Assembly: GCA_030141605.1 (NCBI GenBank)
Contig: JAQGDQ010002373.1
Location: 219,921-283,920, forward strand
Direction of reading: 5' to 3'
From: Tubiluchus corallicola
Lineage: Eukaryota; Priapulida; Priapulimorpha; Priapulimorphida; Tubiluchidae
Length of the DNA: 64,000 bases
Made by a program: the position numbers and the translations under genes. Positions within the stretch are counted from its first letter, which is position 1. Each line of letters starts with the position of its first letter. The notes beneath the pieces were generated by a model that ran no database searches, was not told where the DNA came from, and saw only the letters and a list, made by a program, of their open reading frames with translations. Below, in pieces: positions 1 through 26,500 of this stretch.

Positions 1-3000
1 GAAGGTGATAGTGCAGACAGTTCAATTCATGGCTGGCCTCAGCTTTTTCTTGAAGTTTTGTCTCTCGATATGTGGCATCGATATCGAACGGAAGGCTATG
101 GATACATATCACTCCCCACTGAACCAGGTTAGTGAAGCCTGGTAAAGCATTATCGGTAAAATCTACTTTTGGCGCCTGTGTCCATCATTCACCAGGTGTG
201 TCCTTCACTTAAATGGCTTGAGGTCTATTGGACCAACAAAAAAAAATCATTTTTATCTCTCTCAAACTATTGAGGCTATGAGGCTTAGACTATAATTGCC
301 CAAGCTCAAACATGAATTTTAGTACTAATAATAGACTGTATGAGAGCTGCCTTAAAGGAAAACTGTATTCGATCTTAAACTGTAGCTGAAAACAATCTAC
401 TGTTTAAAATATTGAAAAGAAACACACTATTTTTTCAAGAATGACTTTCATGAAAGAATAATTACCAATGAAATGCAATTTTGCTTGTGCAGCAAGTTCT
501 TTGCTGTTTACATGCAGCTTGCCATTTGTTGGTTAGATCAGCACTAGCACCTGCATTTCGGAAACGCGTTGCATAAAATAACTGGTGCTGTATCTCTTAG
601 TTCGGGTGTGTTCGTTTGTGATGTAGTGCACATGTTTGAGAGCTCGTGGTGAGCATAAATTTGATATTTGAATTTTTATCTTAAAACTTGCATAGTTTAA
701 TACATCACACTGAGTCTCGTACAGTAGCACTTTTTACGTACTTCAAAATGAGGTAGGATATGAAAAATCATCCTGTTTTCCTTTAAGTGTTACGACTATC
801 TGCCGCAGTGTATTCTATTGCAATTTTCACGCTGCAATTAATTATTATGGCATGTATAATGTCACGTAAAAGGTTACTATGTGCTAAACTGCTTTAAATT
901 CGGAAATAAACCATTCGATGGCTTGCTAAATTGATAGCAATTAGTTATACCTTTTTAGCGATTTGCTGTTGCTAACATTCTAATTCTCACCTCCAAAGCT
1001 AAAACTTGAAAGCATAATAATCCTTACGCTTTTAAGCACTTAAGCAATTATGAAATTTTCGACTAATAAATATCAATGAATCGTGTCACGCATAATACAA
1101 AATGTATCCTTGAAATACATTGTGACCCAAATATCTCTTTCTTATCTTTAGGATGCAATATTAGAGTGATTAATACATGGAGGCCAGTAGGGCGATCAAT
1201 AAATGACGAGCTTCGAAGGTTTTTTATTGGTGGATCACCCGAGTTAGAGGATCCGACTTACATTGCTGTGCCATCCACTTTTGAGGTTTGTCATATCTCA
1301 TCTAGTTTCGTAACTGGAAATCTTAGAAATGCTTAGCTCATGATCTGATTGCAAATTAAGAATAACGATTAGGTCGAAATGCAAAATGCAAATATTATCG
1401 AGACATATCGATTTGATTTACTTTCTATATTATATTAAAAATTAATATATATATATATATATATATACATTACATGTGCAGTCCACATGAGGTTTTCTTT
1501 GCACGGTTTACAAACGAAAATTAGAAGTAAAAACTATAAAATAATCAATATAAAAAACAAATATCCTAATTAATATTACATAAAAGCTTAATTGTAAAGT
1601 TGGATTAGAGTTAAAAAGAAACTAATATACATTTTTGCTAATGACTATTCATAAGTAGTTCCCTGAGTTTCAGGTAGTTTCCCTGAATTTTATTAAATGT
1701 ATATTATGTGTGTGTGTGTGTGTGCATGCATGGGTGGGTGGATGGGTGGTTGCGTGTGTAAGATGAAAATCGATCTGTTTGTCAGTCTGTTATTTATGCA
1801 CTCCCACATTCTGCAGTGTAACCCTTAATCTGGTACACCATAACAACCAGAATGGCCTCTGGAAAGTTTTATTCTAATCGTCAATTTAGTCATCGCCTCT
1901 CCCTCTTATGTGGGGTTCTGTGTAGCATAATAATGTGAATTTGTCATTATGCTATTCAAAAAAAAACAAATAACAGCATTTTGTTTTAGGGCAATCGACT
2001 TAGTAAATTTGGATTCAAAACTGAATCTACAGGAAACGTGAAGATTAAGCTGAACATCATCCAACAATCTCGTGCCTTTCTTGATTCAAAATCTCGAAAA
2101 CGAACATTTGCATCATTGGTGGATAAGTTGGGGTAGGTCTTTTTACTAAAATTTGTGGTTAAAACAGCATATCATGTCTGCCTGTTTGTCACTTGGCAAA
2201 TCTGTATTATTAGTTTTCTCATCTGTATGTCATAACTTTAAAAGAAAGCTGGAGCCAATGTCGAACCACAGCTCAAAATGATCTAGCATATAAAATATTA
2301 AAAGGAAACATATTTTTTTCAAAAATGACCTAGTCAATACCGTCGATTTTGGAACCCAGAAAAAGTTGGCATTATAGCGAGTTTGGCGTTATAACAAGAT
2401 GTGTTAAATTTTGGCACAGACAAATTACAAAATAGTCAGACAAGTTTACATTGGTTAGGGTTTTCAATTTTCATTCATCTTTATTAAGAAATTTTCATAC
2501 AAAATTTTTCATCCTGTTTTAGGGTCAGTATGGTGCAAGAAGGAATTATCACTGCACTCCGTAAGTATCAGAATTATTAAAGCAAATTTTATTTTTAGTT
2601 ATGTATATGACGGGCAACAGAAGTTTGATGTTCCTCTTACATATTTGGAAACAACTTACTGGGCAATTATTGGCCCAACAGGACATGTGTAATTGAGCAA
2701 TTTGTTTGCTATATTGTACTGTACTGTACTGGGTAATTTGTTTATCGTACTGCTGATTGTAAATAAGTATTGTTCTTGTCAGTATTGTAGGCCAAATATT
2801 TTATGGTATGACTCAAATTGACTGTCGAATTAATGGGTTAGACAGATGTTTAATCTAAATTTAAAATCGTTTTTCTAAACGTTTGTTGCAGAAAAATTTT
2901 CACGGGCACGACAACGAATGATGACAGCGAGACAAAGTATATTCGCATTGGAATGAGTGATATGGTTTACAGGGTTCAACTTATGATCTAGTGAATTGAT

Positions 3001-3444
3001 TACATACCAAAGATGCACAATGCTTAATCACAATTCACCTGTTTTATGAGTCACACCCATTTCAAATGATATGAGTGATGTCTGCTTTTAAGCCACAATA
3101 GAGTAGGTGTACTGGTGTGTGTGTCAGCAGAACCTAATGTTCGTGTCGTTTGCAGGAAGTTAGGCTTTCTAGGATGTCTTGTTCTTTTCACAAAATATTC
3201 CTACATTCTCTTCCATTCTACTGCAAAACTAGTGACATTCAATTTGTTTTATGATCTTTAAGCTAATCGTGAAGCCTTGAGGGATAGTTCTTTCCAAGAA
3301 ATGCTCGATCCTCCGACCTTACCAGAGACGTCTGTGAGAATTCTGGGTACTTTTCGTCATTTTTTTAACAAAGTATTCCTAAGAGAAAATAGTGATCTGG
3401 CAGTTGAACAAAAATCAGCTAAAGTCAAAGTAATAGACCATTAA
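1..3444 (+). CDS. MKS1: MKS1, Meckel syndrome type 1 B9-domain protein (3' part; gene starts before the window)
   Basis: Six in-frame exons: 1-127, 1152-1285, 1990-2132, 2523-2560, 2892-2936 and 3263-3444 (stop 3442-3444). Phases match at every join. Visible motifs are WPQLFLEVLSLD and GYGYISLP in the first exon, then NTWRP, ELRRFFIGGSPELEDPTY, FGFKTEST and QQSRAF. These are typical of the B9 domain and C-terminal part of MKS1. In known animals MKS1 acts with B9D1 and B9D2 in the MKS/B9 complex of the ciliary transition zone, gating entry of membrane and signalling proteins. The N-terminal half lies outside the window. The C-terminal tail after the B9 domain is basic and Ser-rich and ends VKVIDH. 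Exon 5 (15 codons) and the acceptor of exon 6 (ctttaag) are the least certain joins. A B9D1 or B9D2 assignment is less likely because of the ELRRFFIGG block. Confidence 0.9.
1445..1467. repeat. (TA)n microsatellite
   Basis: Run of about eleven TA units in an MKS1 intron. A shorter (GT)n tract lies near 1709-1724 in the same intron. Confidence 0.9.
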
Positions 3445-3497
3445 CTGCTACAACTGTAAATATTTCATTGTTATTTATTGTAACTTCACAATGAATT

Positions 3498-3503
3498 AAT
3501 AAA
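3498..3503 (+). terminator. Probable polyadenylation signal of MKS1
   Basis: AATAAA located 54 bases after the MKS1 stop codon. Confidence 0.55.
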
Positions 3504-3898
3504 TTATTTTTAACATACAAGTGTTAGTGATACTGTATGTACAATTGTCAAATTTGTGCAATAATTATTCAACCTAAGTTACTCAACAAAAATTGTTATA
3601 CAAGAAACACAAAAATGAGTTTCATATATATGTTATGGAATAATATTAATGTTGTATGCTTAAATATCAACTTAAATAGCTAACACACAACAAAAGCAAT
3701 TGTTAAAATATAGATCAATATTACATTATTATACCAAATATTTATATCGCACACTACTATGAATTCACATGGTTTCAACATTATTACTGTTCTTTTTCTT
3801 GCACATATTTTGAGAAAGATGAAATTTAGTAAAAAGCTCCGCAATGATAGATAATATTAAACAATATCCATTTCCCACATTTTGCAATACTGATAATA

Positions 3899-4709
3899 CA
3901 GTAGGCGCCGCTTAATAGACTCAATGGCTTAATTGACTCAAAAACACCTGGTACGGGCCGCTTGTATTCAATTATACATAAGAACTATCGGTAATTGACT
4001 CAAATAACTCCGCATAATCGATCCTGTTTTTCCTTCACAAGCTTCAATAAGACACTTGTGTGATTAATAAGCTTTTATGACTTTTATATCATCTTAGTTT
4101 GCTTTTGTCCTATAATATACATAGAAACAATCATGTTAAGTACCGTTTTGCTTGTAAGCAGAAACGTTTAGCATACCCTAATGGTTTGCTTTGACCCGCT
4201 GGTCCACTGCAATTAACCTCGTTTCCCAAGAATTCCTGGAAGCTAAACATTTAATCACTTGTTTAGCAGTTTGCTTTTGAACCTCTGGCTGTCTTTGCCA
4301 GAAGGTTTAACACAGTTAGATGTTGCTGTTATGCGAGGAACCCAGGTACAGTACAGTAAGTACATCACAAGTATGGCAAGCTACAGACAAAGTTGGGGGA
4401 ATCACAGGCACATTTTTATCATTTTGAGAACTTTGTGAGCCAACTTCTTCATGATAAAATGAAGCAGCCGACTTTGAAGGAATTTTTGCAAATAAGTAGA
4501 CTTGTGTGATTTTCTAATTTTTAACTGTACAAAGGAATTTAGGCGTTACTTCGTTTCTAAAATTCATTAAAAACATTTTGCAGTGCATAGTAAGCTGGTG
4601 ACTCATATCTTATACCAGTAATACTACACCCATCAGTTAATAAGTTCAGTCGGTTAATTGGGTCAAAACACTTCGATCCCAAAATGAGTCTATTAAGCAG
4701 CGCCTACTG
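3899..4709. mobile_element. TA-flanked TIR element, copy 1 (non-autonomous, Tc1/mariner-pogo type)
   Basis: Begins CAGTAGGCGCCGCTTAATAG and ends with the near-perfect inverted copy, giving terminal inverted repeats of about 25 bp. TA dinucleotides flank it at 3897-3898 and 4710-4711, as expected of Tc1/mariner/pogo target sites. No long ORF is present inside. Two further copies lie at 48674-49452 and 51907-52632. The rest of the MKS1-DNTTIP1 spacer (3504-3896 and 4712-5599) shows nothing I recognise. Confidence 0.85.
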
Positions 4710-5599
4710 TAATTTGTATTAATTCTACACAGGAGTCTACTAATTTTTTGTTCACAATAGAAATATAATGTGTGCAACAAAAACGTCAGGACCGCCACAA
4801 AATTTGAGGTCTTTACCTTGCCTTTGGTGTGTCTAAAGTGGGTCGTCAGAAAAGTATCCTCTAATTTTGCAGGAAGTGCACAAACTTTCTCTGCATAAAT
4901 GTAGAGGTCGATTGTTGAAAAAGTTATAAACCTCAACAGCAATAAATGTGAATAACTAATATTGTGTAATCAAAGAAGCATAAAATACCAAAATGTTTAC
5001 TAATGGCAAGGCTCGGTCCTCATCTCACAGAAAGACCTTAGTGTTTTTGAAAGTGAAACACTTACCAGGAAACGTACCTAGCTAATGTCAGTTTATCAAC
5101 ACCGTACCTGGGCTAAGTTGACAGTGTTATCACCAGTAGCACCACATAACATCAGCATTTGTCGCATTGATTATCCTGTGCTTTGCTCATTCAGTTCAAA
5201 GAGACTGACAAAAATCAAGTCCAGCTTGATGTCATCAAAGTTCGTCCATATTAGATCAATATGCTTGAGGCAAAAGGATGCTTAAGGACCATGTCGATGG
5301 ATTATTAGTCCATGAAGATGCCGATTAGTCAAATGAACAGGCTCAGTGCATTGCTTATGCATTTAACACTTAGAAACCAAAAAAATGGCACAAACAAAAT
5401 GTGAATCAACAAATTTCACCCATTTATATCCTGACTGTTATTATCAGTTTTGCATGACTTTCCAAAAAAGTTAGATGCATAAACATACTAATAACAGTCA
5501 TAGCTAATGCAGACACAACAGCGGAACACACCACAAATGACATTAATAAACACAAATATTTTGTAGACAATATCTGCACAGAAGAAACAGAATTTAAAT

Positions 5600-8500
5600 T
5601 TAATCATTTACATCAAAAGGAGCAGATAGTTGACCATCATTTAGTCCCAGATCAGACATTACTGTTGGACTGGGTACTTCTAAATCAGCAAATTCTCCAA
5701 GAGGCGATGGATTGTGGGTAGAACATGTTTCCATGGTAACTGGCGAGGTGGGACCGGAGCTAGCTACATCCCCTTTACCAGTCTCACTGTTTGCTTCTTC
5801 ATATGTTTCTCCTAACTCTGGCTGTAAAACAAAACAATGTTAAAACAGGTAAGCTATAAGCCACAGTTTATGCAATTAAATTACTTTTTAATAAATTCAC
5901 GGAGTGGATCTTGCATCAACAGGTAGCACAAGATCATAATTTTCTCAGTTATTGAGCAATCAAATCAGTAATGGACAGTGTAAATTTCTACACAGAAATA
6001 AATTCACAAGATCTGCTTAAAAAGTTGAGCAAGTATATCTGTAATAAGCAACTGACTCGTGGTCAGCTAGTGAGCACTCAAATCAGCTGGTCACTAATCT
6101 ACTGAAATCATAAAATTAGTGCGTGCTAGAAATACTTGCGAGGAAAGTCAGACATAAATTACACTAGTACTTAAGTTGATGCTTGTGCTTTCTAATAATA
6201 ATTTGTAGCAACACGTTGGCTTTGTTTGATGGTAAATCCGAAAATTTTAGAAAACACTGTCTACAAAACAAAAATTCCAATTTTGCTCTTTTTTCAAACA
6301 ACTATAAGTTTTTTGTGCACATAAATTTAATAAGTAAATGCTAGTACTAGCTGTTAGATAAGTTTAGCACTTTTCACTCTCGGTCTGTTATGATCAGGGC
6401 AACTAGCAATGTGGTAATACATGTAATTCCAACTACTATATGTAATTCTTATTTTTATTACTATTACATGTAATTCCCTGCAGAGATTCTCGTTGTAATG
6501 TTCGCAAGGCTGTGCTAAAAATATCACTGCACAAACAATGTTTGAAGTTGAATTCGCAAAACTTTAGCTCACATTTTTTCCGGTATATGGTATCTGCAAT
6601 TCATATCAGCCTTTGAGTGTTGGTAACGACATCCAGTTAGCCATACCTTTATAGCATCTAGTTTATCCGAGACAACGTGACCCTGTCTGGACTTGTTACG
6701 GTCTGTGCGCAATGCTTCCATATGGAGTTTCATTTTTAACAGCATGAATTCAGGCACGGTAAAACCTTTGAGTATATTTAACATCAGCCCCGGTTGATTT
6801 CTGAAAAGACGTTCCATTAGCAGAAGTTCCGAATTTTCCAGCATTCCAGCAAAATGCTTAATTAACTAAATAATGATAATTTGTGCTTCCATTATTGAAA
6901 CTCAAGATTAATATTGACAATAGTACATGTATACTTTAAAGCAAACAAGTGTACCTGATTTGTGCATAAAAGCTTTTATCCCATCAGTTTTTGCATACAA
7001 GGCACACTTCTGAATTATTTAGTACATATAATAATAATAATTATATATAACACTGCTAAAGGCTTAATTAGGTGCCATGCTGCATACTGTGCATGACAGA
7101 AAATGGCAAAAGGACCTCACACACAAGTATGCAGGTTCCAAGGACATCTAAATGAACATTTCTAGAACCAGCTAGTGCACTACTTGGTATTGTTAAAATC
7201 TCAGCAGAAGTCAGGTTATACAAATACCGTATTACTGGGATCTTTTAAAGCCTACTGGTTATTATAATAAAAAAGGATTAAAGGGATGACCACAAACGCC
7301 CTTGTTCTCTAAAATGGAATCTGAGAACTGAAAAACTGAAACAGCATGTTCAAAATAATGGGTACTAACTTTTGGAATAGTCTGCAAACTGAAATCTGTG
7401 ACAAATATTCATGGAACCGTTTTTAAGAAAAATACATGACCCACATAAAAAAGCTGTTTAAATGTAATAAATACAGTATGAATTTGATCTCTGACTCCCT
7501 TTTGTTCTGTTAAAGCATTTGTATTATGGCAATTCCTAGGCTCTGAGGGTGGCATCGCAAGATGAAATGCATTTATTACACTGAACATTTTTACAACCAT
7601 ACCAGGATATGAGTACATGCAGGTCAAACTCAAGGATGTGCTCGTGTCAATGTTTGTTAACAAGATGTATGAATTCCAGGCCAGTTATTTGATCTGCCAT
7701 GACATTCTAAGCAATTTTAGACCATTTTCACAGACAAGGCATTTGAGCCAGTAGTACAGCTAGTAGCATAAAAGTGATATTTGATGCATAAATATGCAAA
7801 ATGCAAAATAAACTTTGTAGTATATCAGGCCAGTGTGATTGAAAGGATACTGGTATTTTGAAGTTGGGAAATTGAAAATTTTGCTTTTATACAATGCACG
7901 CAAGGAACAAGGTGCGGCTTTTAACTTGTCATCTGGCTGCAATTGCAATGAGGCAAGTTTAACTGTAATTCACTTGGAAGCAGAGGTCATTGGAAATCAC
8001 AAACAGCCAATGAGGGGGGGGGGGCAGTAGACCAAAGAACAACAATCATAAATCATTTTATATTAAGCTTTCCAACCAGTGGGATGCTACTAGCCTACTA
8101 CAAGCTAGTAAAAGAGGTAGTAGAAATAGGCAGTGACGACTGTCTTTCACTCTGAAAACATTTTCAGCGATTAAGTTAACATTTACATGATATTACAGTA
8201 ATGTACTCTTGTCATTTTGAAGCTCATCAAAAGGGATTTTGACTTTTTCAGACAACCCACTAAAGCCATAATTTAACCTAACCTGGCTTATTAACACTTC
8301 TTAGGGAAAAACTACTAGATATGGAATGCATGGCAAACTACTTCGCCTTATCAAGTAAAATCTTGACAACTTAAACACTGATGCCATCTTCAACATTTAG
8401 CTTATTTACGTTTACTAATGTATGTAATTCATCGTATATTAATCTATTTCTATGTATTTGATCTTCAATAGTTAACCACCTGTATACCATTTCTTCTTCC

Positions 8501-11500
8501 CGAGGCCTTCTTATCAGTGCTTGCTGTGGCCAAAGGTTTTATTTTTTTGTGTCTCTGGCAATAATAAAAATATGGTTATATAAATGTGTTCAATACTCGT
8601 ACCAGAAGACACGCCAAAATAAAATTATATGTGATATATATGGCTGTTCAACTTTACTGATTTATAACCTTTAAATTGTGGGAATGCCCTAACAGTCTAA
8701 CCCTAAATGTTACCAATTACCAAATGGATCAAATAGCTTTCCCTTTTGTTCTTTTGTTTTTTTGTCCTCTGGTTCTGGTTTTATCAAAATCTGATAAGTG
8801 AATACGCAATTATTCATGAACAGTAATTAAATAAAACATGCGAATGTTGCTTAGAACACACAACTTTGGAGCTCTGGATGCCCGGCTCACCGACCACCTT
8901 TTATAGTGCTCTATAAGCACGTCCCTCTATAACATTTTTATTAATTCTGAGTTGGTTATGTTTCACAGGAAACAGTAGTTTTAAGGGTGCAAGAAAAACA
9001 TTTTTCAAGGACAACTGATTGGTTTTTTTTTATTGTATGCAGAAAACATTTTCTTCTACTTGCTCAATTTAAAATTTCTATCTATCAAACATGTTTGATC
9101 CATACAGAAACATACATTTGTCTGGATATACCAACCGACTACTTATTTATTCCTACACAGAAACATTTTTGTCAGGAAATAGTAACTGACTATATATTTA
9201 TTTCTTAATCAACAATAGTTAATAATAATTTATTTAAAAAGACACTTATGTAGTCAAACCGTGTCAAAATGTGTGGGAATTCTGGAGGGGGAAGTTGATA
9301 TATAAAATAATCTGATCATCATGAAGTCTCCCTTTCTCCTGAAGAGAACTACTTAATAACAAAAGAATTGCAAACAAGAGATAAAAACTGCATCGGAAGT
9401 CATTTCTTTTTTCATTTTACTGACATGTTCTCTGGCTCCAAAACAGTGTAGCAAAGACTGAAATTTCACTGTAATAATTCCATAACCATGGTTAAGTAGT
9501 TGCATTTAACCTAATTTTAGTCAACCATATTTTGCAACGTGAAATATTGTGCAATGTAGACACATGTAGTTACACTGTACCTGATACTCTAACATGGTCT
9601 TTGGACTGTGTGTCAGTACAGAATCAGCTTCTACTGACGTGATAAATGTGTCAGAATGTGACGTAGTTTGTAAACAAAATGTGATGATTTACGCAAGAAT
9701 GATAAATACATGTTACATTAACGTAAAGCAAAGGGCGTATTTGTAATGTAAATACTAATGCCGTTATAACAGAAGCTGACATAAGAAGCTAGGAAGGAAG
9801 CAGTTATAAAATTAGTGAAAACGTCTGGTACTCTACATAAAATTATGAAACTTGTAAAACTGTCAGTCTGTGTTATACTGTCGGCATGGCTGCCACAAAT
9901 AACCTTCAGCTATTGGCCATGTTTCCATGATTGCGTAGATGTGCCTTTATGTCCACATGAATTACCAAATGACCGATGTGTATGTACAGAATCCGGCGGT
10001 CAATCAACAATATTCTGCGAATGGATGGGATATGAACCACTAAGATTAACGTTAAAGACAATGCGGTTACAGATTGGCACCTTTATCATCAGTGAGTTTC
10101 ACTACTCGCCAAAGCTGGTTGATAACATGTTAGAAAGTATGATCTCTTTACAGAAACTACGAGTGAATAGAACAGATGTAACTGAACTCAACAGTGGAGC
10201 ATTCAAACATTCTTCTGCACAACTAGGACTAACCACACTAGAAATTGTAGACAATGAACAACTAACTAAGATAAGTAATAATGCCTTTTCTGATATTTCC
10301 TCATTGCAGTATCTATATTTGAGACGTAATCGTTTAAGTGAAATTGCAAGTGAGAGCTTTGAAGGACTTCCACATTTGATAACACTTGACTTAAGTCAAA
10401 ACGCAATAACGGATGTTGCCTCTTGGATACCTTCAATTCCTGGCAGCGTACAGAACTTGTGGATGTGCTACAATGGCATTACAACTCTTCAGGCAAACAC
10501 ACTTGGAAGTTTATCAGGTTTGTTCGCACTTTATCTGGACTACAACAAGATCCACACAATTGAGGAAAGGGCGTTGGACAACTTGCAAAATCTCACTGTG
10601 CTTTTTCTAGGTGAGAACAATCTGACATCATTGGAATCTGGCACATTTGCAAAAACCACTAAGTTGAAAATAATTAGCTTGGTTTACAACAAGTTTGAGC
10701 ATATAAAACGCGGAGTCTTCGACGATCCCGGACTAGAAGAACTAGAAAGCCTCGACCTCAGCAACAATCTAATAAAAACATTAGACGAAGATTCCATTAT
10801 AAGCAGAAGCGAATATCAAGCCATAACGCTAGACTTGAGTAGTAAGTTCTTATTGTTAAATCAACTTAATATTGCCAAATGACACAATTAGCACAATAAC
10901 TTTCTGTTCTGTTTTGATTCCCACTTATTCTAGTGAAATTTAAGTGTTAAATAGCCTAGCAGTCACACTAATGTTGAACAACGCAAATTATAGATAGCAT
11001 CGAAAGTGTGCAATGTTGATCACCTAAAAACAGTCAACTTTTCAAGTGACTAATCAGGTACGATAAACTTGATAAGCTTTAGGGGTTATCTTGATGGTGA
11101 ATCTTAGAAAAAATGCCATTACATAACTCCAACTCTTACAAACAGCTGTTTTAAACGAAAAAAAGAATAACATCAATAAAATTCCTAAAATTTGGCTGAA
11201 AGTACACACAGTAGTAGAATTAAAATGTGCAAAACAGTGTTTTCATACAATATTACTTAGCACTAATTTTACTGAACAGCCATGAGATTGAAATCATATA
11301 ATGTACACTCATCATTTTGCTTTCCAAAAAATTCGGGACAACAATAACCAGGTTTAATGCATTAAACTTTTTCAGACAATCCCTTAAACTGTTTGTGTGA
11401 ACTAGCCTGGCTCATTAACACTTCCTGGGGAGGAGGTACCAGACTTGGAAAGTGTGCTGCACCACCTCATCTGAGCGGACAAAGTCTTGACGACTTAACT

Positions 11501-14500
11501 ACCGAAGACTTGTGCAATCTTTAAGTTTCCTATAATATATTAAAAATTTTTCAGACAATCCATTAAACTGTTCGTGTGAACTGGCCTGGCTGGTTAACAC
11601 TACCTGGGGCTGGGGAACTAAACTTGGAACTTGTGCCGAGCCACCACATTTTAGCGGACAAAGCCTCGATGAACTGAATGCAGCAGACTTATGCAATCCA
11701 TACAGACCGCCAACTGGAAACCCGACGACAGAGGAAGAGGAAACGACAGAATACACCAAAGACACCACTGAATCGCCACCACAAACAACTACAGATTCTG
11801 GTAGAAGATTACAATTTGAGATGATTTTGCTATCTTTATCTATATATGTGTCTTTAATGCAGAAATTAGCTTGAAAATATATTAGCATTCTCACATCTTT
11901 TACGGTTATTTAATATGTTATATCAAATTCAAACATAGACATCAAGTTATAACTATAAGTGAATAAAATACGACAAAAACTTATTAGCAGAATTAAATGA
12001 ATAGAAATAAACATGTGTTGCTGTTCTAACATAGTAATAATATGATTGTTTCTTAAACATATAGTTTGTTAATTTGATTAAAATGATTTGTTAACGTGAT
12101 TATCAGCCTTTTAACCATCTTTTGCAGCTATGATCAAATGAATAGAAATAAATATGTGTTGCTGTTCTAACATAGTAATAATATGATTGTTTCTTAAACA
12201 TATAGTTTGTTAATTTGATTAAAATGATTTGTTAACGTGAGTATCAGCCTTTTAACCATCTTTTGCAGCTATGATCAATGTTGATTGCTGCATCAGATTA
12301 ATACAAAAAAATGTTAAAACTATCACTCAACTACACTGACACGTTAACACACCAACACTTCAATCTCAACTGTGTTCAAGCTGATGCAGCTATCAGTACT
12401 CACGTTACGACAAATAAGCGAGAATGAACAGATTTCAGCAAAGCATCTATGACTATGGAAACAACTCACTCCATACTTACATAATTCAGAAAGAATTTTG
12501 TGAAAGGCTTTGTATGAAAACTTACTTGTATTCATTTGTTTCAGCTAAATCATAAATATCTTCCTCTATCAAGAGATAGGCTCTTCCACCCGTTGCTGGC
12601 ATCAACCTATTTTCGTACAACCACACCTTGTCTTCACTATCACCTGAATACTAAAGTTAAAATTAACCGAGTTATAGCTAAACAGGAAACAACTGCTGAT
12701 ATTCAACCTTAAATATGTGTGTATTTCACAGCAACATGTGAAGCAAATACCACAAAAAAACAAATTTATGAAAAGCTTATTTATTTGTGGTGAGATATTA
12801 CATTTTCTTATGTTATTATTTTCTCATTTTTTTTGTATTTTTAAAAATAATTTGCACAAGAAATGCTTTTTCAAAACTAATTTAGAGCTAATGATTAGCA
12901 GTCACTATAACAAAATTAGTAGGACCTATTGTCCACTTTCAGCAGTTAATTCTGCAATTGACAAACAGGAGGTCAATTATGCATAAGATAGTTTATATTA
13001 TACTACATTACTTATTTTGACAGTAAATTGGCATACAAAGAAGATGCGTAATAGTGCATTCACAATAATAGGGCCTTGGAGTAGCGAAGTTAATCGTCAA
13101 ACAAACTGCTGCTGATTTTTTCAATATTCTTATCGTGAAGTGGCATCGCTAGTTGCCGGATTCAGCATCATAACGAGTAAAGCAGTTAAAGATGGTCTCC
13201 ACTCAGTAAATAACACAGCAATTTGTAACCTAAGCAACACGTTAGTTCAAAGAATTAGGGACCAAAAAAACTGCCCGTGAATTCTGTGATGCACCAGTCA
13301 CATTTCACCTTTTGCATCTTTCCTTTTCTTTTTTTGTTTCGCTACTTATGATCACTGTGCATAGTTTAAGTAGTAATTACTTACCTTAAATAAATCTGGA
13401 TGTTTTATGTACAATCTACCACGAGTAGCACCAAGACCTAATGCTCTGTAAAACAGTGAACAAACATTACTCTGCAAAATAGAGACACAACTTATCTTTA
13501 ATATCACTTGGCGATGAAGATTTAAGTACAGTACTTAAATTCTTATGACATTTTGAAATATTCCAAACATAAAGTAGGCATTTCATGTTTTTAATGGGGG
13601 GGGGGGGGGGAAGGGGCAGTTTGTCACTGCACTGCAACACTATTGCTCACATGAACTGGCTCTCCACCACACTCTCTACACTATTGAATAATCAAAATTA
13701 GGAATTCTGCTTGATAAATTGGTCAGTAAAAATGCAGTTTTATCGAAGACTTTAGGCTCTCAAGAAAATTGTGAATTTTCGTTCTTGTTATTACACTAAA
13801 TTAGCATAAAAACAAGAATGAAAAGCCATAGTCACTTACAAAAACTAAGCAAAATCTCTGTTTTCACATAAAATTATATCTTGACTCATAAATATATAAT
13901 TTGCCTTTAACCGGCACAGTCCCATAAAATAAAAACCAAATGTTGGAAAATAACCATGATAGAGAACTAAAGGAATCCAAAAAGCACAGGAGTCCATAGC
14001 AGCTAAGAACTGAGACACATGTACTATTGACCCACACCACCCGTTGTATATATCATTAGCAAAACATTTAATATTAAAATTATTGCTCACTTATTTGCTT
14101 TAGCACCCATTACGAATTTTGTTTCAAGCGTCAGCCGTTCGGGATCCCATTTCGGCCCCTCACGCAGTACTGACTCAGCTTTGCTGAACTTTGAGGATGG
14201 CGTGCTACGTCCAGAGCCTAAACCTCGAATCTGTAACAAAACATGGCATGTAATTACCATACATGGTCAAAAGCAAACTGACATAATTATAACGATGTAA
14301 TCACCATCGTTGGGCTTACATTAAATGAGACTGAAATTAACAATAAACAAAACTGAAAACAAAACAAACAAAACCAAAGTCAATTAAATTTGAGTGATTA
14401 TAAGTTAATATTATAAAATTAAAACAACACATTTTTAATATCAATTATACCTGTCCAAAAACATAAGGAAATTCATATGCCAATACCAGTATATATACAT

Positions 14501-17500
14501 ATACAAACACACACACACACCCTCACACATGCAAGCATGCACACACACACACACACACGTATATAAACTTAACAGTTTAATTCTTGCATTGGTGGATAAT
14601 GATAAAATGTTATTCAATAATAGAGCTATCTAGGACATTTCTTCAATTCTTAAATAACAGAAGTATTAGAACCATAACTTATCACAAAAAAGTTAATCTT
14701 TTACATCAAACTTTTATTTTTTACTTCCTCCAAACAGGACTTCTAACAGCCTATGTAATAAACTCCCAGAAATATAATTAACAAGTGCTTCTCCATTGCT
14801 TAATCCAATAATATCATCTTATGCAAGCAGTGCTGATAGGGTGCCGTTGTTTTTCTTAGCCCACGTGAGAATGTATTGGTCAAACAGAGTTTTTATGGTT
14901 CATATCATCTCAGCTGTAATCTTATATTTGCATTCCAATATTTACAATTATAGGATTAAACATTAGCAGAGGCTGAACAGCTCACGCCAACTGGTTTTTA
15001 AAAATGTCTCTGGGGCATTAACTACAACAAAGTTTGAGGTTTGACACTAAACCGGTACAGGGCCAAAGAAACTGTGATGGGGGTGGGAAGATGACCAACA
15101 CCAAATACAATGCAAATAATGAGCATGGCATCACCAAGGTGACAGCCTACGATGAGAAATAATGTGTCAACAGCCGAAATACTGTAATGGAAAACTTCTG
15201 CAAGGGCTGCCACTAATTCACATTTTAGGCCTGTTGTGCTGCCAACACCCATCAAACTACCTGAAAAAATGCTGTTCTCAGAGCTTAATTTGCTACAATA
15301 TGCAGTAGTGGCCAGTAGTTCGTGTACTTGAGAAAGGAAATATTTAAGTGGCAAATAATAGCAAACTCTGACTACTTTAATTGAAAAATGCCTTCTAATT
15401 ATTTGAGTACAGAGTTTTTATTAGTGATGTCGACTTTATTACTCCTGTGCCATGCTGAAGACTGCTCACAGTACTCCGGATGTCCGAAAATGACACAGTG
15501 TCACTGCAGCTTTGGAACAAGGGTGGCCATCACAGAAAAATGTCCACACGTTGCCTGCATCTACCATGACAGCACACAGTTCGAAGCAGCTGTGAGCGAG
15601 ATCGACCGGCCTGTCTACAAACTCATGGTCACCAACAACAACCCCAATGCTACATTTCCCAAGAAGTTTCTGAAGGGAATAGTGGCCCGTCATGTAGAAC
15701 TCAGGGCAAGAAATTTGATGGCAATCAAGGAGAAAACCTTTGAAGGTCTTGACGCTACGAATCTTATAATAAAGGCAACCAATCTCCCACAGATACACCC
15801 AAAAGCATTTTTAAGTCTAAGGGACTTGGAATCACTCAAAATTACAGCTGCCAAGCTTCAGCATTTCAAGTTGGACCTATCTTCACTGTCGAGGTTAAAA
15901 GAGCTTGATCTGTCGAGGAATGGCATAAAAAATATTGACTACATACCATTTCATCAAAATGTTGAGACAAAAAACGTTTTACTGCTGCTATATGGTGAGT
16001 GACAACTATTATGCTACAGCTACTGGTACTACCATAATGATAATGATAACGATATAAGATATACAATAATGGTGACGATAACAACAACAACAATAATAAC
16101 AAAAAACCAGTAAGTACATGTAACTCCAAGTACAAGAAAATCAAGTAATAGCAAATTTTGAAGTTTCATTATGAAGTTCTATCATTTATTAAATTAAAAG
16201 TTCATCTCACAGCTAGGTGGAATTTCTTCACACAATATTAATTGACAATTATTTTTACAAAACAGAATAACTCATTGAGGCTTGAGGGTGTAATGGCTGT
16301 CAATGAGGGTATAGGCTATATAAAAAATACAGCCCATCTAATTTTAAATTATAAGTTGTACATATAATTTACAAAAACTCGTGGTTTAGCCTAATGCAAT
16401 CACCACCAACAGTTTTTTGTTTTCTTTACATTCTTATATTAAACATATTGTAGTTGTGCCAAATACATATTTAAGATTCACTGCACATATGTGGTTTGTG
16501 CTGCACTGTAGCTCTGTATTAGCATAACTGTATGTTTGGGTCACCCTGCAAAAGTAGTGCCAGTGGACCACAAATCATTAAACTTAGGTAAAAATGTCTG
16601 AGGCCTATCGAATGTACCACAATTTTTAAGATCGGTCAAAAAACATCATAACTTGCCTTTAATTTTTCCTTGAGAATTTCGCGTTGACAAAATTGTTAAA
16701 GTTTTGGAAAATTATGCATTACTTTGATGCTTTACCAGTTCTTCTTCACAGCCAAGGGTCCCTCCAACCGATGGGTTTCCCAGCAGATACTGGGGCTGTG
16801 AGGGTGGGTGCAAAGTTTTGCCACTACACTGCTGTTTTGGGGCCATCCAAATATAACGATATCAAGTTTAGGGAGGTAGATGACATGAGATGTGATAACA
16901 CCATTATAACATAATGTAAATAGGTAAGTAAAGTAAAGGTAAAGGTAAATTAAAGGTAAGTAGGTGATTTAGTCATGATATTGTTAACTGACTTCATGTT
17001 TTTTTCACACGTGTGTGCCAGCAGCAGTAGCAGTGCCAGTAGAATGACGCAACCCACTGATGGTTTCTCATTAATTAACAACAGTGATGTTGTTGAATGT
17101 CCTTGGGAGGAGAAAGAATAAAATGTACAAAAAACTACATCGATATCAATATAAGAGGTAGGTAGGTGGTGGGGCATATGATAACACTATTACAACATAA
17201 GGTAGGATAGTCCTCCAAATCGGCCGAAAACTTGATATCGTTATGTATGGATGGCCCCTTTGTAATACTTAGCACATTATCCAGTAGCAACCCAGAAACT
17301 TATTAATAGGGAAACACACAATTGTCTTTATATAATTATAACATTAGATCTTTTAACAACACATTCACTCATTATCAGGAAACCCTTTTGAATGTGACTG
17401 TCGATTACGATGGCTGAGAGAAACCGTCTGGCTTAACGAAGGAGATTATCAGGGCAGCGACCTTGGCGTCTGTGACTCGCCCAAGAAGCTCCGCGAGAAA

Positions 17501-20500
17501 CGTGTGCTCGACCTCAAGCCAGAAATGTTGTCAGATTGTGAACCAAAAAACAAAGACAAAGCTGGATCATCTGGGAGCATTTCAACACTGCACTCAATCA
17601 TAGCAGTGATCTCAGTTATACTACCTGCATGTTTAATCAAATAACCACACTTTTTAACAATAACCTTGGCCTCTCTCACATGCGTGGCATACCATATCTA
17701 CGATTCCATATGTGCTATACAATGCATATAAAACAGTTTTTACTAAAACTTCCTTTGCGTGCCCAAACACTTCTGCATTAGTAGGATACACACGTAGACT
17801 TTCAGAGAGTATTATAGCACATATTTTCACATCTTTATTTTTCTTTTGTGAAAATACTCTGAACTGTTTCTGCTATAGTATATTTATTATGTTGTCCACC
17901 TAAAACCTTTTTCCTCGTTTTTACAACATAACAATGGTTAAACAAGTGATGCAGTCATAACAATCGTAGTCATCATCATCCTTCGCACATTCGAAAATCT
18001 CTTCCTTTCTTCTTGACATAGAACATGGGTAATCAAAAACCTGGTTTCTGCTTTTCAACTCTAAATGGCAGGAAGTATGTCCAGTTAAGTTAGAAAACGT
18101 GAATCTGTCAATAAACTATTACGTTATGCAACGAGCAATGTGCTTATCAGCATTCTCACGCTTCACTCAGTGAATGCACAGAGTTGTAGCTTATGAGAGC
18201 AGAACCATCAAATTCATTATTATCTGCAAATACGTCTAAACTAGATAGTCATTTGGTTCAGTAAGCATACTCAAACTTAAGAGTACTTTGACTGCCTTAC
18301 TAATTATCGTTATGCATACAGGGGCAGTCAGGTTCTAAAGTTAGGAGGGCCAAATACATAAAAAAACTTGACCACACCACACAATTTTCAACATATTGAT
18401 TATAAATTTTAATTTTGTGTTTAAAATCAAAACACGAAACAGAATACAGCTTAAAATTAATTAAAACACAAAAAAGTTTTGCAGTAAGCTTATAAATCTC
18501 AAATTTGGGGCAATTTGATCCTTGATTCTATCAGGCAACCTTGATAAATGAGTTACGTAAATGCACACTCATTTCAAACACAGGAGCCAGATTGGTCAAA
18601 TAAAGTAATGACACCAGAAATTGTTCCAGGGCCATGCGATCAAAAAATATAAAAAATCGACTTTTATTGTGTTTATAGAGTTAATAGAGCTTAAATGTAA
18701 CAGACATAGACTTCTACAAGCAATTAAGGTGTGCAGACATTAGTACAAATGGCTGTAATATGTTAGTGTATGTATGTTAGCGTAAGTTTAAAACAATCCA
18801 AGCCAGCATTTAACAACATGCAGCTTAGTTTTGCCTTTGTTTCTTTAAAAAGTATTTCTGCACAAATCAAAATGTACAGGTGTGGAAAGTGAAAACAAAA
18901 TGAAAGATTATAGTAAATTAAAGTTACTAAGTAAATTGTAAACTGATACAGTAGCAATCAAAATTTTCGCATGTTAGTTCTTAAACACATAGGATTTTTA
19001 CAGGAAGTTTGTAGTTTATAGTAATAATAATTATAAACATTTATTAATCGTTGATTATAATGTATTTACTCATCTTGTTATCATGAAATGTACAAGCATT
19101 AGAAAATAATAATTGTATTGTGATACTGTATGCTTGTTACTGACATGTTCACATGAATTGTGCAATAAACAGAAATAAATTAGTTTGAAATTAATGTTTT
19201 TGTCATATACTGTAAGTAACAGCTAATATTCTTTTTCATTAACTTATATCGCTCATATATTTGTAATCATACTTATACTTATAAACATACAAGATCTAAG
19301 TTCAAAAAATTTGAAATTTTGACAATGTTCCATGTAAACGCTCTCAAATGAGGTAAACCCGAGGCCATTGATCAAATTTTATTCAAGATGAACTAAAGTT
19401 TTCGCCAGTCACTAGTAATCTTAATATTACTAAAAATTCTCTCCCCACATGTAATACACCATACCTTTTGTTAGACTACAAAACAAAGACACTGCAAAAA
19501 TTCTAGAACGTTAAGTATTGGGAGTTTCTCAGGAAGAAAACCATGCATTAATGATGGGTGATTTTGAAGTTGGATTACAAACTTGTTCTTGTAATTTGAT
19601 ATCACGATTAATCTTTGGTGACGCTTTTTTTACCGTTTTAGCAATATTTATCAATGATTGCAGGGAAATATAGCCTGTAAACTTCTTCACAGCTTTCATC
19701 GCTGTCAGCCATTGTTGTACTCGTAACCTATTTCATAGACATGTACATTTGTTAACTACTCTATAGGTCACTATATGCATCACGTGCCAACGAAGTTTCC
19801 AACATAGTGGTTAGCACAAGGTGTAGACGTTGTGTAAGGTGGGAAAAATTAGAAAAAAACACAAAAATTGAGTTTATTTGTACTAACACACTGGCTTTTA
19901 GTCGGTGTGTAACACGTATAGTTTGCTGTCGATTAATGTTGATTAAGTGAATTACTGTTCAGTTACAAATTATATGATTTATACATGGTTGTATTTGGGG
20001 TTAATTCAATTAATCCATTAACCGCCCATCGCTGCCATGTGTTATAACATGGTGCATGATCCAACAACTCAGACAACTAATCCAAATTAAACTAACTCTT
20101 TTGAGAATGTGCACACCACATGTAAAAACAAAAAAATGAAACAAATAAAAGTAAAGACGACAAAAACACAAGAGCAATGTAACTCACCTTTTTGTGCCTG
20201 CTGATGGAGATGCTGACATCAGAGTCAGTGTCAGAAGTGTGGCTTCTTTTTAAATAACTGGGAATGTTCTAACAAAAGAAAATTTAATTGTAGCTGCACT
20301 GGTGAAAATTTCCACATTGCAAAGTACAGTAAGCCCTTGCTTAACGATGCTCTGTAAAAGTTGCTGCTAACGAGACACTGAAAAACTACTTTCTTGGTTA
20401 TGTTCATATCTGTCAGAAAGGAAACAATCCGTAATTATCAATGGTTTTGCATCTGATCTAAAGTGCGTGTATAGGTCCTCTCCTCTTTTTGATATTCATT

Positions 20501-23500
20501 AAAGACACATAGCTGATGGTATTCAGTCCGATATGCGATTACTTACTGACGATACATGCATAAAACATGTAGATGAGTGTCCAAGTGCTACTGGTAACAC
20601 ATTACAGCAAGATCTAAGATCTGTATTACTCAATGGGCTAGGAGATGGTTGGTTACCTTTAATGCAGACAAAACAGAATTAGTTATCTTTTCTCACAAAA
20701 CTCATCCACCATTTCATCCCGATCTGCTTCTTCAGGGGACAAAAATCGGAAATTATATTAAGCATAAACACTTGGGTTTAATTTTAACCAGTAATTTAAC
20801 TTGCAACGTTCATATGCTATTATTTTAGTTAGAGCTTCTAAACGTTTAGACCCATTGCAAAAAATTAACTTCTTTTAGATAGGTGGTCCTTAGACAAGTT
20901 ATACAAATCGTATATTAGACCATTGCTTGAATATTGTGAATGCATTTGGGACAATTGCACAGAAGCGACTGCTCTAGCTGTTGAACAAATTCAGTACCAT
21001 GTTTCATTGGTAGTGTTTGGAGCTGTGTTTGGTACAAGCGGAGAGAAATTGCTGAGAGATCTTTCTTGTGACTCCACGTCACCACAGAAGATACATTCAT
21101 AAAATGTCTTTATTTTATAAAATTGCTAAAGGAGCTTCATCATCTTACCTTACTTCCATACTTACAGAACCTGTTTATGATAGAACCTACTATAATTTAC
21201 GTAATAGTGAAAATTTATCGTTAATTATTTGTATTTCTAACTACTTTCAATCAAGGTTTTTCCCTTCTGGTACAGAAAAATGGAATAAGCTTTCTACTGA
21301 TATTAGAAAATTAAAATAAATTTTTAGCCAGTAAGTTTTAAGAAAGTTCTAATTAAAATTTACTGTATTCCCCTGAAATTTTATTATTTTACAGGTGCAC
21401 GTTTTGCTTCTGAGTTAACCTACATTAAGGTTGGGCACAAATGCTTTAAATTACTCTTTTGTACAAATTCAGCTTTATCACATGCTACTATTTATAACAA
21501 ATGTAATTTGCAAACTGAAGATGTGTTGCATTATTTACTAATATGTCCAATTTACAATGCTATAAGATTACCTTACTCGAGTAAAGTAACTGTCTTAATA
21601 GCCCCGTATGTTAATTTTAATGACCTTTTGACGGTCGATAAAGCTAAACTTTTAGTTGCTGGATGCAATCTGTTTCCAAATTCAATTAATCAAGCTCTAC
21701 GAAACACAAATGTACATTACAAAGACAAAAAGGCAAATACTGTTGATTAAAAATAAAGATTTCATTACTATTATTATATATTTCCGTAAATATATACACA
21801 TTAATATTTTCTCTTGCTAGTCATTATAATCACCACTGCCTTAGCTAGCCCAAACAATAACAGTATACCTTACTTAATGTGTCCACCGATTGCTTATGTA
21901 GATTATTAATAGCTGGGTGTACAACTGGTATACTTTTGTAATATATTCAGAAAAATCTTTGATTAAACAACCTAACTGCTTTATAGATGATTCTGTTAAA
22001 AAATAAATGTCTATAAATTTTTTTAGTTTTTTGCACTTTAGTTACATTTTAGTTTTCACACCTTAGTTACTGATTAGCTTTTTAATTAAACAAATACTTA
22101 TAGTGTAGCTGTAAGCAATAAACCCTACAAAGTGTTTAATTTATAAGCCAAGTGTTATCGGTTTTCCCCTGCAACATAACTGAATGGTTTTATATACCCA
22201 TCCTTTCAGTGATTGTTATTCCCCTGCCAGGAATTGAACCCTTTTGCATAGCACTAGAGATTTTTGCTACTGGAATCCAACACAATGCTTTTACATTCTT
22301 TCTTGGGGAAATCATGGTTTCATCTAGCAATGTTTTGCTTAACAACACTTTTTTTGGGCATCATCATTAAGCGAGGATTCACTGTACCCGAGTAGCTTTC
22401 CGTTTTACAACGCAAGTGTGAAATGTAAATGCATTACAAATGTCTCCAAATTATTATAAAAGTGCAAAACTTGCAAAACAGCTATTTCAATGCATTGAAA
22501 TTTATTACATCATAATTATCAGTGAGTCAGGTGGACTATATCCATTACAACATTGTTAAGTACCCATGCGCGCACGTGCGCAAATATAAACATATACAAT
22601 TAACGTTCATTTAAATCTAGTGCTAATTTAGTACTTAAAGTAAGCAAAGTCGGCATTGAAGGAGAAAAAGATGGCAAATAGTCATTATTGTTAAATGAAT
22701 CATTAATAAACAAAGAGTCATTAAAACAAGGACTTACTATACAGTAGACATATATGTAATATTTGTAAATATATATGTAAGCATATATGTAAATATATAT
22801 ATATATACATATATACATTTGGGAGAGGGAAACAAAATATTTTTGTTTAAGTAGCTTGCAAGTTTTACTTAATAAATTTCATAATTAAACTGTTAAAATG
22901 AACACTTTCAATGCTACGCACTGTTTCACGGTCAATCACTTAGTTTGTTATCAGCACGGATTTTGACTAGAAGTAGCAACTATGCTGTTGTGACGCTTTC
23001 CACATAGTTTCAGGAAAAACTCCCGCAGCTGCTTTATTTTCCAGAAATAGAGGATAATATTTGTCAATGCGCTGATGTTTATTAATATGTCAGCACTCTG
23101 CTTCAATGATTTAAGTTCCAACTCAGTAGCACAGGTAATACCCAAGTGTGCAAAAAAAGCTGCAAAACACAGCAATGATGTTCCAACAGTTGCAAACACA
23201 GATATTGCAGCTTTGATCCGCTCTATTAAATTCAGATAGTTTTGATGACTATCAGGCACTGCATTAGCTAACTGGATTTTATGCTGTAGAACAACTTTAA
23301 ATACACTTGCATAAATGAAGAAGATGACTGAAGATGCTATGGCATATTGTGCAGCAAAATAAAGACAAAATTCGGGGTGAACCTGACGGGCTATGACACA
23401 TTTTGTAACATCCTTAACCTCCGTATTATTCAAAAAGGTAAACCACGATGAAGATGCTATTCCTATGCAAAAAGAGTATATCCAAGACACAAAGATAGTG

Positions 23501-26500
23501 ATAGTGCTATTCAAGTTAGTACTGAGATGGTGATAATGTAGAGGATAGATGATAGCGATGTATCTATCAATTGTCATCAGAACTTCCATGATCAAGCATT
23601 CTGTGAGCAGTCCACACACAACAATACCATTCACTGCACAATGCAGAGCACTAAAGTCGGTAACATAATGCCGCACTATCAACATATGAATGTTGTACAA
23701 AGAAAGTAAGGCACTCGAAATTGCAAAATTTGCCAGGAAAAGATTGGCCGCTGTTCTGAGAAAATTTTTTACCATAATCAGTGCTACAACGCATACATCT
23801 AACCCAATGAGAATGGTCATTAAAAGCATAAAAACAGTAAAATATACTACAGTTAATATTGAACTGAGCTTGTCAGCATCAATATCAGTCACATTCAAGC
23901 TGGTCAGGTTCATAATAATTAGTGAACTATTTGCTTGGTCACCACTAAGGAATGAGAAGTTTTACAAAATTGTCTTAGACGACTCAACAGAAAGCGACCA
24001 ACAACATATCGCTTTAGCATCTCATCAAACTACGATCGTAAAAGCCAGTGCGCAAGCATATTATTATTAGACATCCCTTGCCACAGAGGTCAAAGGAAGG
24101 ACATTTTGGGGGCTTGGAAAAGTTATATGTGATAAAAGGGAATAATCTAACACTGTTAGTGACTTTCAGCTTTATAATCTTAAATTTCCAAAAAAAATTC
24201 ATCTGCGGACTGAAAACTAATGAAATTTTTAGACAACTGATATATTTGATACACGTTGCTCGAAGGTCTTCGCTATAAATTAAAATGTTTTCAGACTATC
24301 ATTTTCACAGTGTTGCACAAGTTAATATATTACAAACATTCTACAAGGGCTTTTCAAGAGACGCTTCATGAAAGCAAGTGTTAATATGCTATATTTTGTA
24401 CAAAATATTCCATACACTTACCTTATTTATAATTCGACTCATTCTTAGTTCAGTAGTACTTTCTGAATCAGATACATCTGGATATGGTGTACTACCTCGT
24501 GTGGGAGACGAATACAGACGTTTAGCCTATATATGGTGGAAATGCATTTTAATGATTTTTCTAACAACACATCCAACAAACAAAATAATTCATAGTTTTA
24601 TCTCTTTAAATTTTCTATTATAGCTTATAAAATGTCTACAAATAAATAAAGGCCAATTATAAAGGCCAATAAACGGGCACTTAAAAACATTTATAGTTAA
24701 AAACAACATAACTTTACTAAAGCTTTTTTACTTCACATTGTTGTATCTCGGCATTTCGTCTAGCACTGGCAAAAAATTAAAAAATTCTCCTCAGTCCAGC
24801 ACTTATGACCATATTTGTGCCTCTGGCCACAAAGCTGATTTTAATAATTTCAGCACTGCGACCAGAAGTACAAATAGCTAGGACTTATTAATAAAAGGAA
24901 GTTTATCTGTGTACCCTTATAAGCCTTCTCTTAATGCACAAATACTTAGCTATTTGTTACTATATCGATTTCTTTGCTTCAGGTCTGCTTAATCATTACC
25001 TATTTGCCAGGTAACTACTGTTAACTACTTAATTAGTGCATAATAGGCTCTACCTATATAAACTGGTTGTATGTTTGTAAAATTTGCCACTAATGATGAC
25101 AGCTGTAGTTTGTCGAAACGTTGGCATGATTTTAACTATGTATAGTAAAAGTTTTAATAAATTGTGTTGTTTTTCATCTACAAATATGGGCCTACTTCAT
25201 AATGTACAGAAAATGCATAATCTCAAAACTATCACAGCAAGCATTGCAATATTAACAAAAAGTACTCCAAAATGTAATTAAGCAAACTACGAGTAGATAG
25301 TAATTACATTCCAACAGAACACCATTAATGACAACTTCTACCAAATGCAATGAATAAAGGAATCTATACCTCCTCGAGTATCTGTCTGCATACTGTGTGC
25401 ACGTGTTCTTCTGAAACTGATTCATCACCATTGTTTTTCTTAATATTCTCTATACATGGATTAAAATATTTCTGAAATGAAAATTGAAGTGAGAATTACA
25501 TATTGTGCTACCCTTCATAAAGGGTGGTGCACGACCTTCGGCTAGGGGAGTACACCAATAATGAGTAGTAGAACAAAATGATGGCTAGTCTATCTTGCCA
25601 TCAAAACTTGAAGTGGATGCCTTATACAAGACTCGCACAAAACGCAAGCTTGAGGGTATGATCAGAGCAGTGACTCAAAGAAGTCAAGATCTTCCAACAC
25701 ATCTTGCAGATGGTTCACAAGCTTATCTGTTGAATACTGACCAAAGGCATGCTTTCCATCATCTTAGCACCCCTCTGCATTTGGTGTGTTTGGCAGGGCA
25801 GAGGTTCGGTGAATTTCCAAGCCATTCAATTCAATCGAAAAAACTAATTCCAGAGAATTTATGTCACTGCTTCTATCATAACTTTCAAGATTGCAGGCAT
25901 TGCAAGACGTATGAGGATTCCACACCAGCAATTGTTTGAACAATGCTCTGATGTAATAAACTGTTCTGTGCAATAATTGTTGTTTTTGTACCCCTAGCAA
26001 AATGTTATGTACAACCCGGCATAAGTGGCCAATTACAAAATTTAAAAAAAATATCGCCACCAAAAGGTAAACCCATCCAAAGCCACAGATTGGTATAAAC
26101 TGAATCTTAGACTACGTTATTTACCAACAAAGCGTGCTAAGGATAAATGAAGCTAATAGCACAGATTAAAGCGCAAACAATTCGCAGCTCATTACAAATA
26201 CAAAGTAAGTGTTTTGTAGTTATCATGGTAGCATCTACTGGTGTGCGTAAATAAATTGAAGACATCTTTGCGTAAAAGTGAATGCTGACTGAGAGATGCA
26301 GTTAAGATTCACAGTATCTTCAAAATGGTAATCATAGAATGATGTGAAGAATAGAGCTATCTAATTTCATTTGGTGCTGTAATGATGTTTGGTTTTAATG
26401 CATTACAAATAGTCAAAAATTACAGAAGAAACAAAAAGTGCATAACAGTGTATATTTTCCTCCTATAAATGAGCCTATAAATTTGAAGTTATCACTTGAG

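What the first reader, a model, noticed from the sequence alone, without database searches (positions are those of the whole stretch)
10841..11874. Two intact alternative LRRCT exons predict secreted and anchored forms of one LRR receptor
The donor at 10841 (phase 1) can join either the exon at 11376, which ends in a stop just after the cysteine cap, or the exon at 11555, which adds a Ser/Thr/Pro-rich stalk and hydrophobic tail. Both keep all LRRCT cysteines and the frame. Choosing an exon would switch the receptor between soluble and membrane-bound states and would also change the cap sequence. Changing the cap by exon choice in an invertebrate LRR receptor is unusual and could relate to immune recognition or cell adhesion.
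Basis: partly seen in the sequence, partly recalled or inferred. Interest (0 to 1): 0.7.

Follow-up and report, generated by a model that had tools for sequence, protein, structure and literature searches.

The report
Receptor gene with two alternative end-caps
One invertebrate receptor gene carries two intact copies of its end-cap exon, one that would end as a secreted protein and one as a membrane-anchored protein; the sequence says both copies have been kept by natural selection, but no RNA data were available to show that both are used.

Summary
Exon 1 (9845-10841, phase-1 donor) can join cap exon 2a (11376-11524, stop two residues after the last cap cysteine) or 2b (11555-11874, stalk plus hydrophobic, GPI-like tail). 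The caps lie in a 156-bp direct repeat, 79% identical, 179 bp apart.

New evidence: 2a is not a decaying duplicate. dN/dS between the copies is 0.11; 0 of 7,980 simulated dead copies of matching divergence reached the observed pN/pS; a codon model with equal copy ages rejects neutral 2a (2dlnL 28.3). Without the equal-age assumption the branch test is uninformative (p 0.30). A third cap copy at 8252-8400, not mentioned in the finding, is truly decayed (three internal stops, cysteines lost): 39 unique changes against 6 in 2a.

Only 30 nt separate the 2a stop from 2b, so the choice is between two 3' splice sites; with 2a used, 2b becomes 3' UTR. The intron just before the cap is a family feature (20 of 22 other caps). 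None of 25 other caps examined has an intact second copy; one has a 37-bp relic.

Soluble and membrane isoforms of an invertebrate LRR gene are already reported (crab VLR2). The duplicated, selectively kept cap is a new variant. Use of 2a is inferred, not shown.

The parts
9845..10841 (+). Exon 1: signal-peptide-like start, N-terminal cysteine cluster, leucine-rich repeats; ends phase 1
   Evidence: Open frame from ATG 9845; Pfam LRR_8 E 1.6e-38; PDB hits are extracellular LRR proteins such as IGF-binding complex acid labile subunit, LRRC15, LRIG1
10842..10847 (+). 5' splice site GTAAGT
   Evidence: Read directly; the last LRR (LDLS + N + NPL) is completed across the junction
11376..11524 (+). 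Cap exon 2a (LRRCT, stop two residues after the last cysteine): predicted secreted end
   Evidence: constraint:
11525..11554 (+). 30-nt spacer holding the 2b acceptor tract
11555..11874 (+). Cap exon 2b (LRRCT, Ser/Thr/Pro-rich stalk, hydrophobic tail): predicted anchored end
   Evidence: 19 of 36 stalk residues are S/T/P, best 13-residue hydropathy 2.19 with 4 residues after it
11803..11871 (+). Hydrophobic tail of 2b, GPI-signal-like
   Evidence: Hydropathy only; no GPI predictor was run
11364..11519 (+). First copy of the 156-bp direct repeat (second copy 11543-11698)
   Evidence: 79% identity, spacing 179
8252..8400 (+). Decayed third cap copy (three internal stops, cysteines lost, terminal stop at the same codon as 2a)
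   Evidence: 90 of 141 sites identical to 2a, 77 of 141 to 2b
11962..11967 (+). AATAAA, candidate poly(A) signal shared by both forms

Best explanation
The gene encodes an extracellular LRR protein whose last exon has two selectable 3' splice sites, each followed by a complete C-terminal cap. Joining exon 1 to 2a gives a 381-residue secreted protein that stops just after the cap (2b then lies in the 3' UTR, and no downstream intron remains to mark the stop as premature). Joining to 2b gives a 438-residue protein with a stalk and a GPI-type tail. Shown from sequence: both frames, both acceptors, shared cysteines, purifying selection on 2a over most of its history. Inferred: that both junctions are used, that the 2b tail is a GPI signal, that the soluble and anchored forms have different jobs.
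For: Frames and sites; intron just before the cap in 20 of 22 other caps, and the two focal acceptors are the best two of 37 AG sites; dN/dS 0.113 and 0 of 7,980 simulated dead copies with pN/pS as low; equal-age codon model rejects omega 1 for 2a, 2dlnL 28.3, p 1e-7, and for 2b, 2dlnL 11.9, p 6e-4; pairwise omega 0.5, the value expected with one dead copy, rejected at p 6e-4; decayed copy at 8252 has 39 unique changes against 6 in 2a, p 9e-7; separate paralogs carry a cap exon ending in a stop (C1935, C676) or a hydrophobic tail.
Against: No transcript data. Without the equal-age assumption the branch test cannot tell omega 1 on 2a (p 0.30) or on 2b (p 0.47), because the outgroup is saturated. 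Among 11 paralog caps 7 are closer to 2a, 3 to 2b, 1 tied, which is not decisive. An open frame alone is weak: 29-52% of simulated dead copies keep one. Selection could have acted while 2a belonged to another gene, and 2a could have died recently. The five 100% identical copies of the locus look like overlapping contigs and give no polymorphism.
Confidence: 0.72

Rival explanations
1. 2a is a leftover: the cap of a former neighbouring gene, joined to this gene by a deletion; it was under selection there and is now unused or dying.
For: A decayed cap lies 3.1 kb upstream and is closer to 2a than to 2b (19 against 6 informative sites, p 0.015), with intron-flank similarity to 2a (3 of 1000 shuffles as good); tandem LRR genes are common here.
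Against: 2a has few changes of its own since the split from the decayed copy (6 against 39), so any loss of function must be recent; its acceptor, cysteines and frame are intact; no exon-1 relic was found at 3000-8243 (best E 0.14).
Confidence: 0.17
2. Both acceptors are used, but the 2a form is splicing noise without function.
For: Two near-equal acceptors 179 nt apart (scores 5.9 and 7.1); a paralog (C1659) has a 37-bp relic of acceptor and cap start upstream of its cap that runs into a stop.
Against: Noise does not predict dN/dS 0.11 or intact cysteines.
Confidence: 0.08
3. The tandem caps are an assembly artefact.
For: The assembly holds five identical copies of the locus on contigs that appear to overlap.
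Against: The copies differ at 31 of 141 coding sites, mostly third positions, too far apart for haplotypes joined in error, and the array is identical in all five contigs (not independent).
Confidence: 0.03

Closest known systems
Eriocheir sinensis VLR2 (crab LRR gene; PMC10045472: abstract, passages and section 17 seen)
   Same: Invertebrate LRR_NT-LRR-LRR_CT gene; splicing yields one isoform with and nine without a transmembrane domain
   Different: [quoted passage not shown] here each form keeps a complete, separate cap. No duplicated cap exon was mentioned in the parts seen
Tail-less Dscam of crustaceans (PMC6851185: passages seen)
   Same: Soluble and membrane forms of one receptor chosen at the RNA 3' end
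   Different: In shrimp Dscam the soluble form comes from retaining an intron with a stop and poly(A) signal; here from choosing a duplicated cap exon
Immunoglobulin heavy chain secreted/membrane exons (recalled)
   Same: Secreted against membrane end of one receptor by choice of 3' end
   Different: Works through poly(A) site competition and separate exons; no duplicated domain
Agnathan variable lymphocyte receptors (partly from passages of PMC10199209, partly recalled)
   Same: LRR solenoid, LRRCT, stalk, GPI-type end
   Different: VLRs are assembled from cassettes; here the LRRs are complete in one germline exon
Amphioxus FrLRR (PMC10199209: passages seen)
   Same: LRR receptor whose last exon carries part of LRRCT and a predicted GPI site
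   Different: Fusion with a folate-receptor domain; a single cap

Membership tests
Extracellular LRR protein with cysteine caps | Tandem LRRs | tested here: met
   Pfam LRR_8 E 1.6e-38, five stretches
Extracellular LRR protein with cysteine caps | LRRCT cap with four cysteines | tested here: met
   All four cysteines in 2a and 2b; Pfam LRRCT matches but under its cut-off, 16.9 and 15.7 of 20 bits
Extracellular LRR protein with cysteine caps | LRRNT cap | tested here: inconclusive
   Cysteine cluster near the N terminus, but no Pfam LRRNT match
GPI-anchored protein (2b form) | C-terminal hydrophobic tail after small residues and a short polar spacer, no cytosolic part | tested here: inconclusive
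   13-residue stretch of mean hydropathy 2.19, 4 residues after it; no predictor run
Alternative secreted/anchored receptor | Two in-frame 3' ends joinable to one donor | tested here: met
Alternative secreted/anchored receptor | Both transcripts made | not testable with these tools
   No RNA data
Mutually exclusive tandem exons | Homologous neighbouring exons | tested here: met
   79% identical 156-bp repeat
Mutually exclusive tandem exons | Each exon separately spliced at both ends | tested here: not met
   2a has a stop, and only 30 nt lie before 2b
Agnathan VLR | Incomplete germline gene with flanking LRR cassettes | tested here: not met
   LRRs complete in exon 1

The most novel reading that the evidence does not exclude
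The two caps are long-kept alternatives that change both where the receptor goes and what it binds: a soluble form with cap 2a acting as an opsonin, decoy or signal, with a different contact surface from the anchored 2b form, so that one splice choice sets both solubility and specificity.
Probability: 0.2. Interest if true: 0.65.

Novelty: new variant of a known kind. Interest (0 to 1): 0.42.

Why it matters
If both forms are made, a single acceptor choice would decide whether an LRR receptor is released or stays on the cell, while each form keeps a complete cap that has been under its own selection. That is a compact route to paired soluble and anchored receptors, testable by one RT-PCR, in a genome rich in related tandem LRR genes where the two end types otherwise sit in different genes.

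Tried and rejected
Branch-specific codon model without equal ages: no power, outgroup branch at its upper bound; kept in the report as a null result. Search for an exon-1 relic upstream of the decayed cap: nothing convincing. Downstream flank similarity of 2a and the decayed cap: 145 of 1000 shuffles as good, rejected. The coding comparison of the decayed cap used a frame one base off; one search repeats it correctly and only one search is used. Organism: COX1 was not found; the arthropod cuticle family gave no match, but it also rang in none of the controls, so it says nothing; the species stays unknown. Rfam: no match in the window. Literature: eight searches listed no duplicated LRRCT exon choice; most hits were seen as listings only. 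Simulation settings: 20 run, 6 dropped for fewer than 30 replicates at matching divergence (19 replicates in all), 14 kept.

Full report
What is there. Exon 1 runs from ATG 9845 to 10841 and ends in phase 1 before GTAAGT. Two acceptors, both TTTTTCAG|ACAAT, open cap exons at 11376 (2a) and 11555 (2b). Spliced in frame they give 381 and 438 residues. The last leucine-rich repeat is completed across the junction in both. 2a stops two residues after its last cysteine; 2b goes on into a stalk (19 of 36 residues S/T/P) and a hydrophobic tail. The two caps lie in a 156-bp direct repeat at 179-bp spacing, 79% identical. Exon 1 matches Pfam LRR_8 strongly; the caps match LRRCT below its cut-off; LRRNT was not matched.

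What kind of event. From the 2a stop to exon 2b there are 30 nt, too few for an intron (general knowledge). If the 2a acceptor is used, the transcript keeps 2b as 3' UTR and, with no annotated intron further on, the 2a stop need not be treated as premature (inference). ATTAAA at 11539 and AATAAA at 11962 are candidate poly(A) signals; I put no weight on the first.

Is 2a alive? Over 47 codons the copies differ at 31 of 141 sites, at codon positions 6/6/19, with 12 amino-acid differences; dS 1.10 (near saturation), dN 0.125, ratio 0.113. I simulated a dead 2a beside a constrained 2b. In the 14 of 20 settings with at least 30 replicates at the observed divergence, 0 of 7,980 replicates had pN/pS as low as observed. 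An open frame alone was kept in 29-52% of these, so the open frame itself is weak evidence. With equal ages for the copies and the C545 paralog as outgroup, omega 1 is rejected for 2a (2dlnL 28.3) and for 2b (11.9), and 2a is the more constrained (p 0.026); pairwise omega 0.5 is rejected (p 6e-4). Without equal ages the same test has no power (p 0.30 and 0.47), since all change can be put on one branch and the outgroup is saturated.

A natural control. A third cap lies at 8252-8400 on the same strand, upstream of exon 1, with three internal stops and its cysteines lost. It matches 2a at 90 and 2b at 77 of 141 sites. Where 2a and 2b differ it sides with 2a at 19 sites, with 2b at 6, with neither at 6 (p 0.015). 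It has 39 unique changes spread over codon positions 12/16/11, against 6 unique to 2a; as a relative-rate test with 2b as outgroup p is 9e-7. If instead it branched off before the 2a/2b split, the 6 against 19 changes still make 2a the slower copy. Its final stop falls at the same codon as that of 2a, so the short, secreted-type end may be old (inference; one codon). Its upstream flank resembles the intron before 2a (3 of 1000 shuffles as good), its downstream flank does not convincingly (145 of 1000).

The family. The genome has many LRR genes. Of 28 stretches fetched, 19 showed a cap by a cysteine pattern; the pattern misses some, for instance the C448 cap that one search lists. An acceptor stands exactly two bases before the cap's first conserved codon in 20 of 22 caps other than the focal pair (two of the 20 are near-identical neighbours in L026). 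With a matrix from these 20, the 2a and 2b acceptors score 5.9 and 7.1, inside the leave-one-out range of -3.8 to 14.9, and are the best two of 37 AG sites. Most cap exons examined for tails end in a hydrophobic stretch (one search checks seven, chosen by me, plus the C545 transmembrane type). Two, C1935 and C676, end in a stop four and eight residues after the last cysteine without an evident donor. So separate genes carry the two kinds of end that the focal gene combines. Three further short caps (C567 at L031, C861, C1931) have possible donors and were not counted as secreted (by eye).

Is the pair unique? A DNA search of up to 2 kb before and 1.5 kb after each of 25 other caps found one 37-bp relic of acceptor and cap start (C1659, running into a stop) and one 14-bp match that is probably chance. 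None had an intact second cap. The survey is partial and pattern-based; absence elsewhere in the genome is not shown. The nearest other cap, C545, is 46% identical to 2a and 41% to 2b. Among 11 paralog caps, 7 are closer to 2a, 3 to 2b, 1 tied.

Limits. No RNA, no related species, no polymorphism: the locus occurs five times at 100% identity, and for two pairs of contigs the offset of the match equals the difference in contig length, as expected of overlapping contigs. Species unknown. Selection could have acted while 2a was part of another gene.

Known background. Crab VLR2 has one isoform with and nine without a transmembrane domain (PMC10045472: abstract, passages, section 17). Shrimp Dscam makes a tail-less form by retaining an intron (PMC6851185: passages). 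Amphioxus FrLRR has a last exon with part of LRRCT and a predicted GPI site (PMC10199209: passages). Eight searches listed no case of two alternative LRRCT exons. I therefore call this a new variant of a known kind.

Noticed in passing
8252-8400: Decayed third LRRCT copy upstream of the gene, with three internal stops and lost cysteines.
   Followed up: yes
15388-17644: Second, distantly related LRR gene on the same strand: N-terminal exon (open frame to 15999) and a cap exon near 17379-17644 with a hydrophobic, GPI-like tail.
   Followed up: partly
11992-12273: Two head-to-tail copies of a 141-bp unit, 98% identical, just downstream of the gene: a recent tandem duplication.
   Followed up: no
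L012:650-686 and 814 on the reverse complement (C1659): Paralog with a 37-bp relic of a duplicated acceptor and cap start before its cap, so cap duplication has happened more than once.
   Followed up: partly
L015 and L018 (C1363, C794): LRR clusters in which the cap and what looks like the next LRR N-terminus share one open frame.
   Followed up: no
whole locus in G000: Five 100% identical copies on contigs that appear to overlap: redundancy of the assembly.
   Followed up: partly
22954-23961 (-): Open frame that looks like a rhodopsin-type receptor (by eye, no search run).
   Followed up: no
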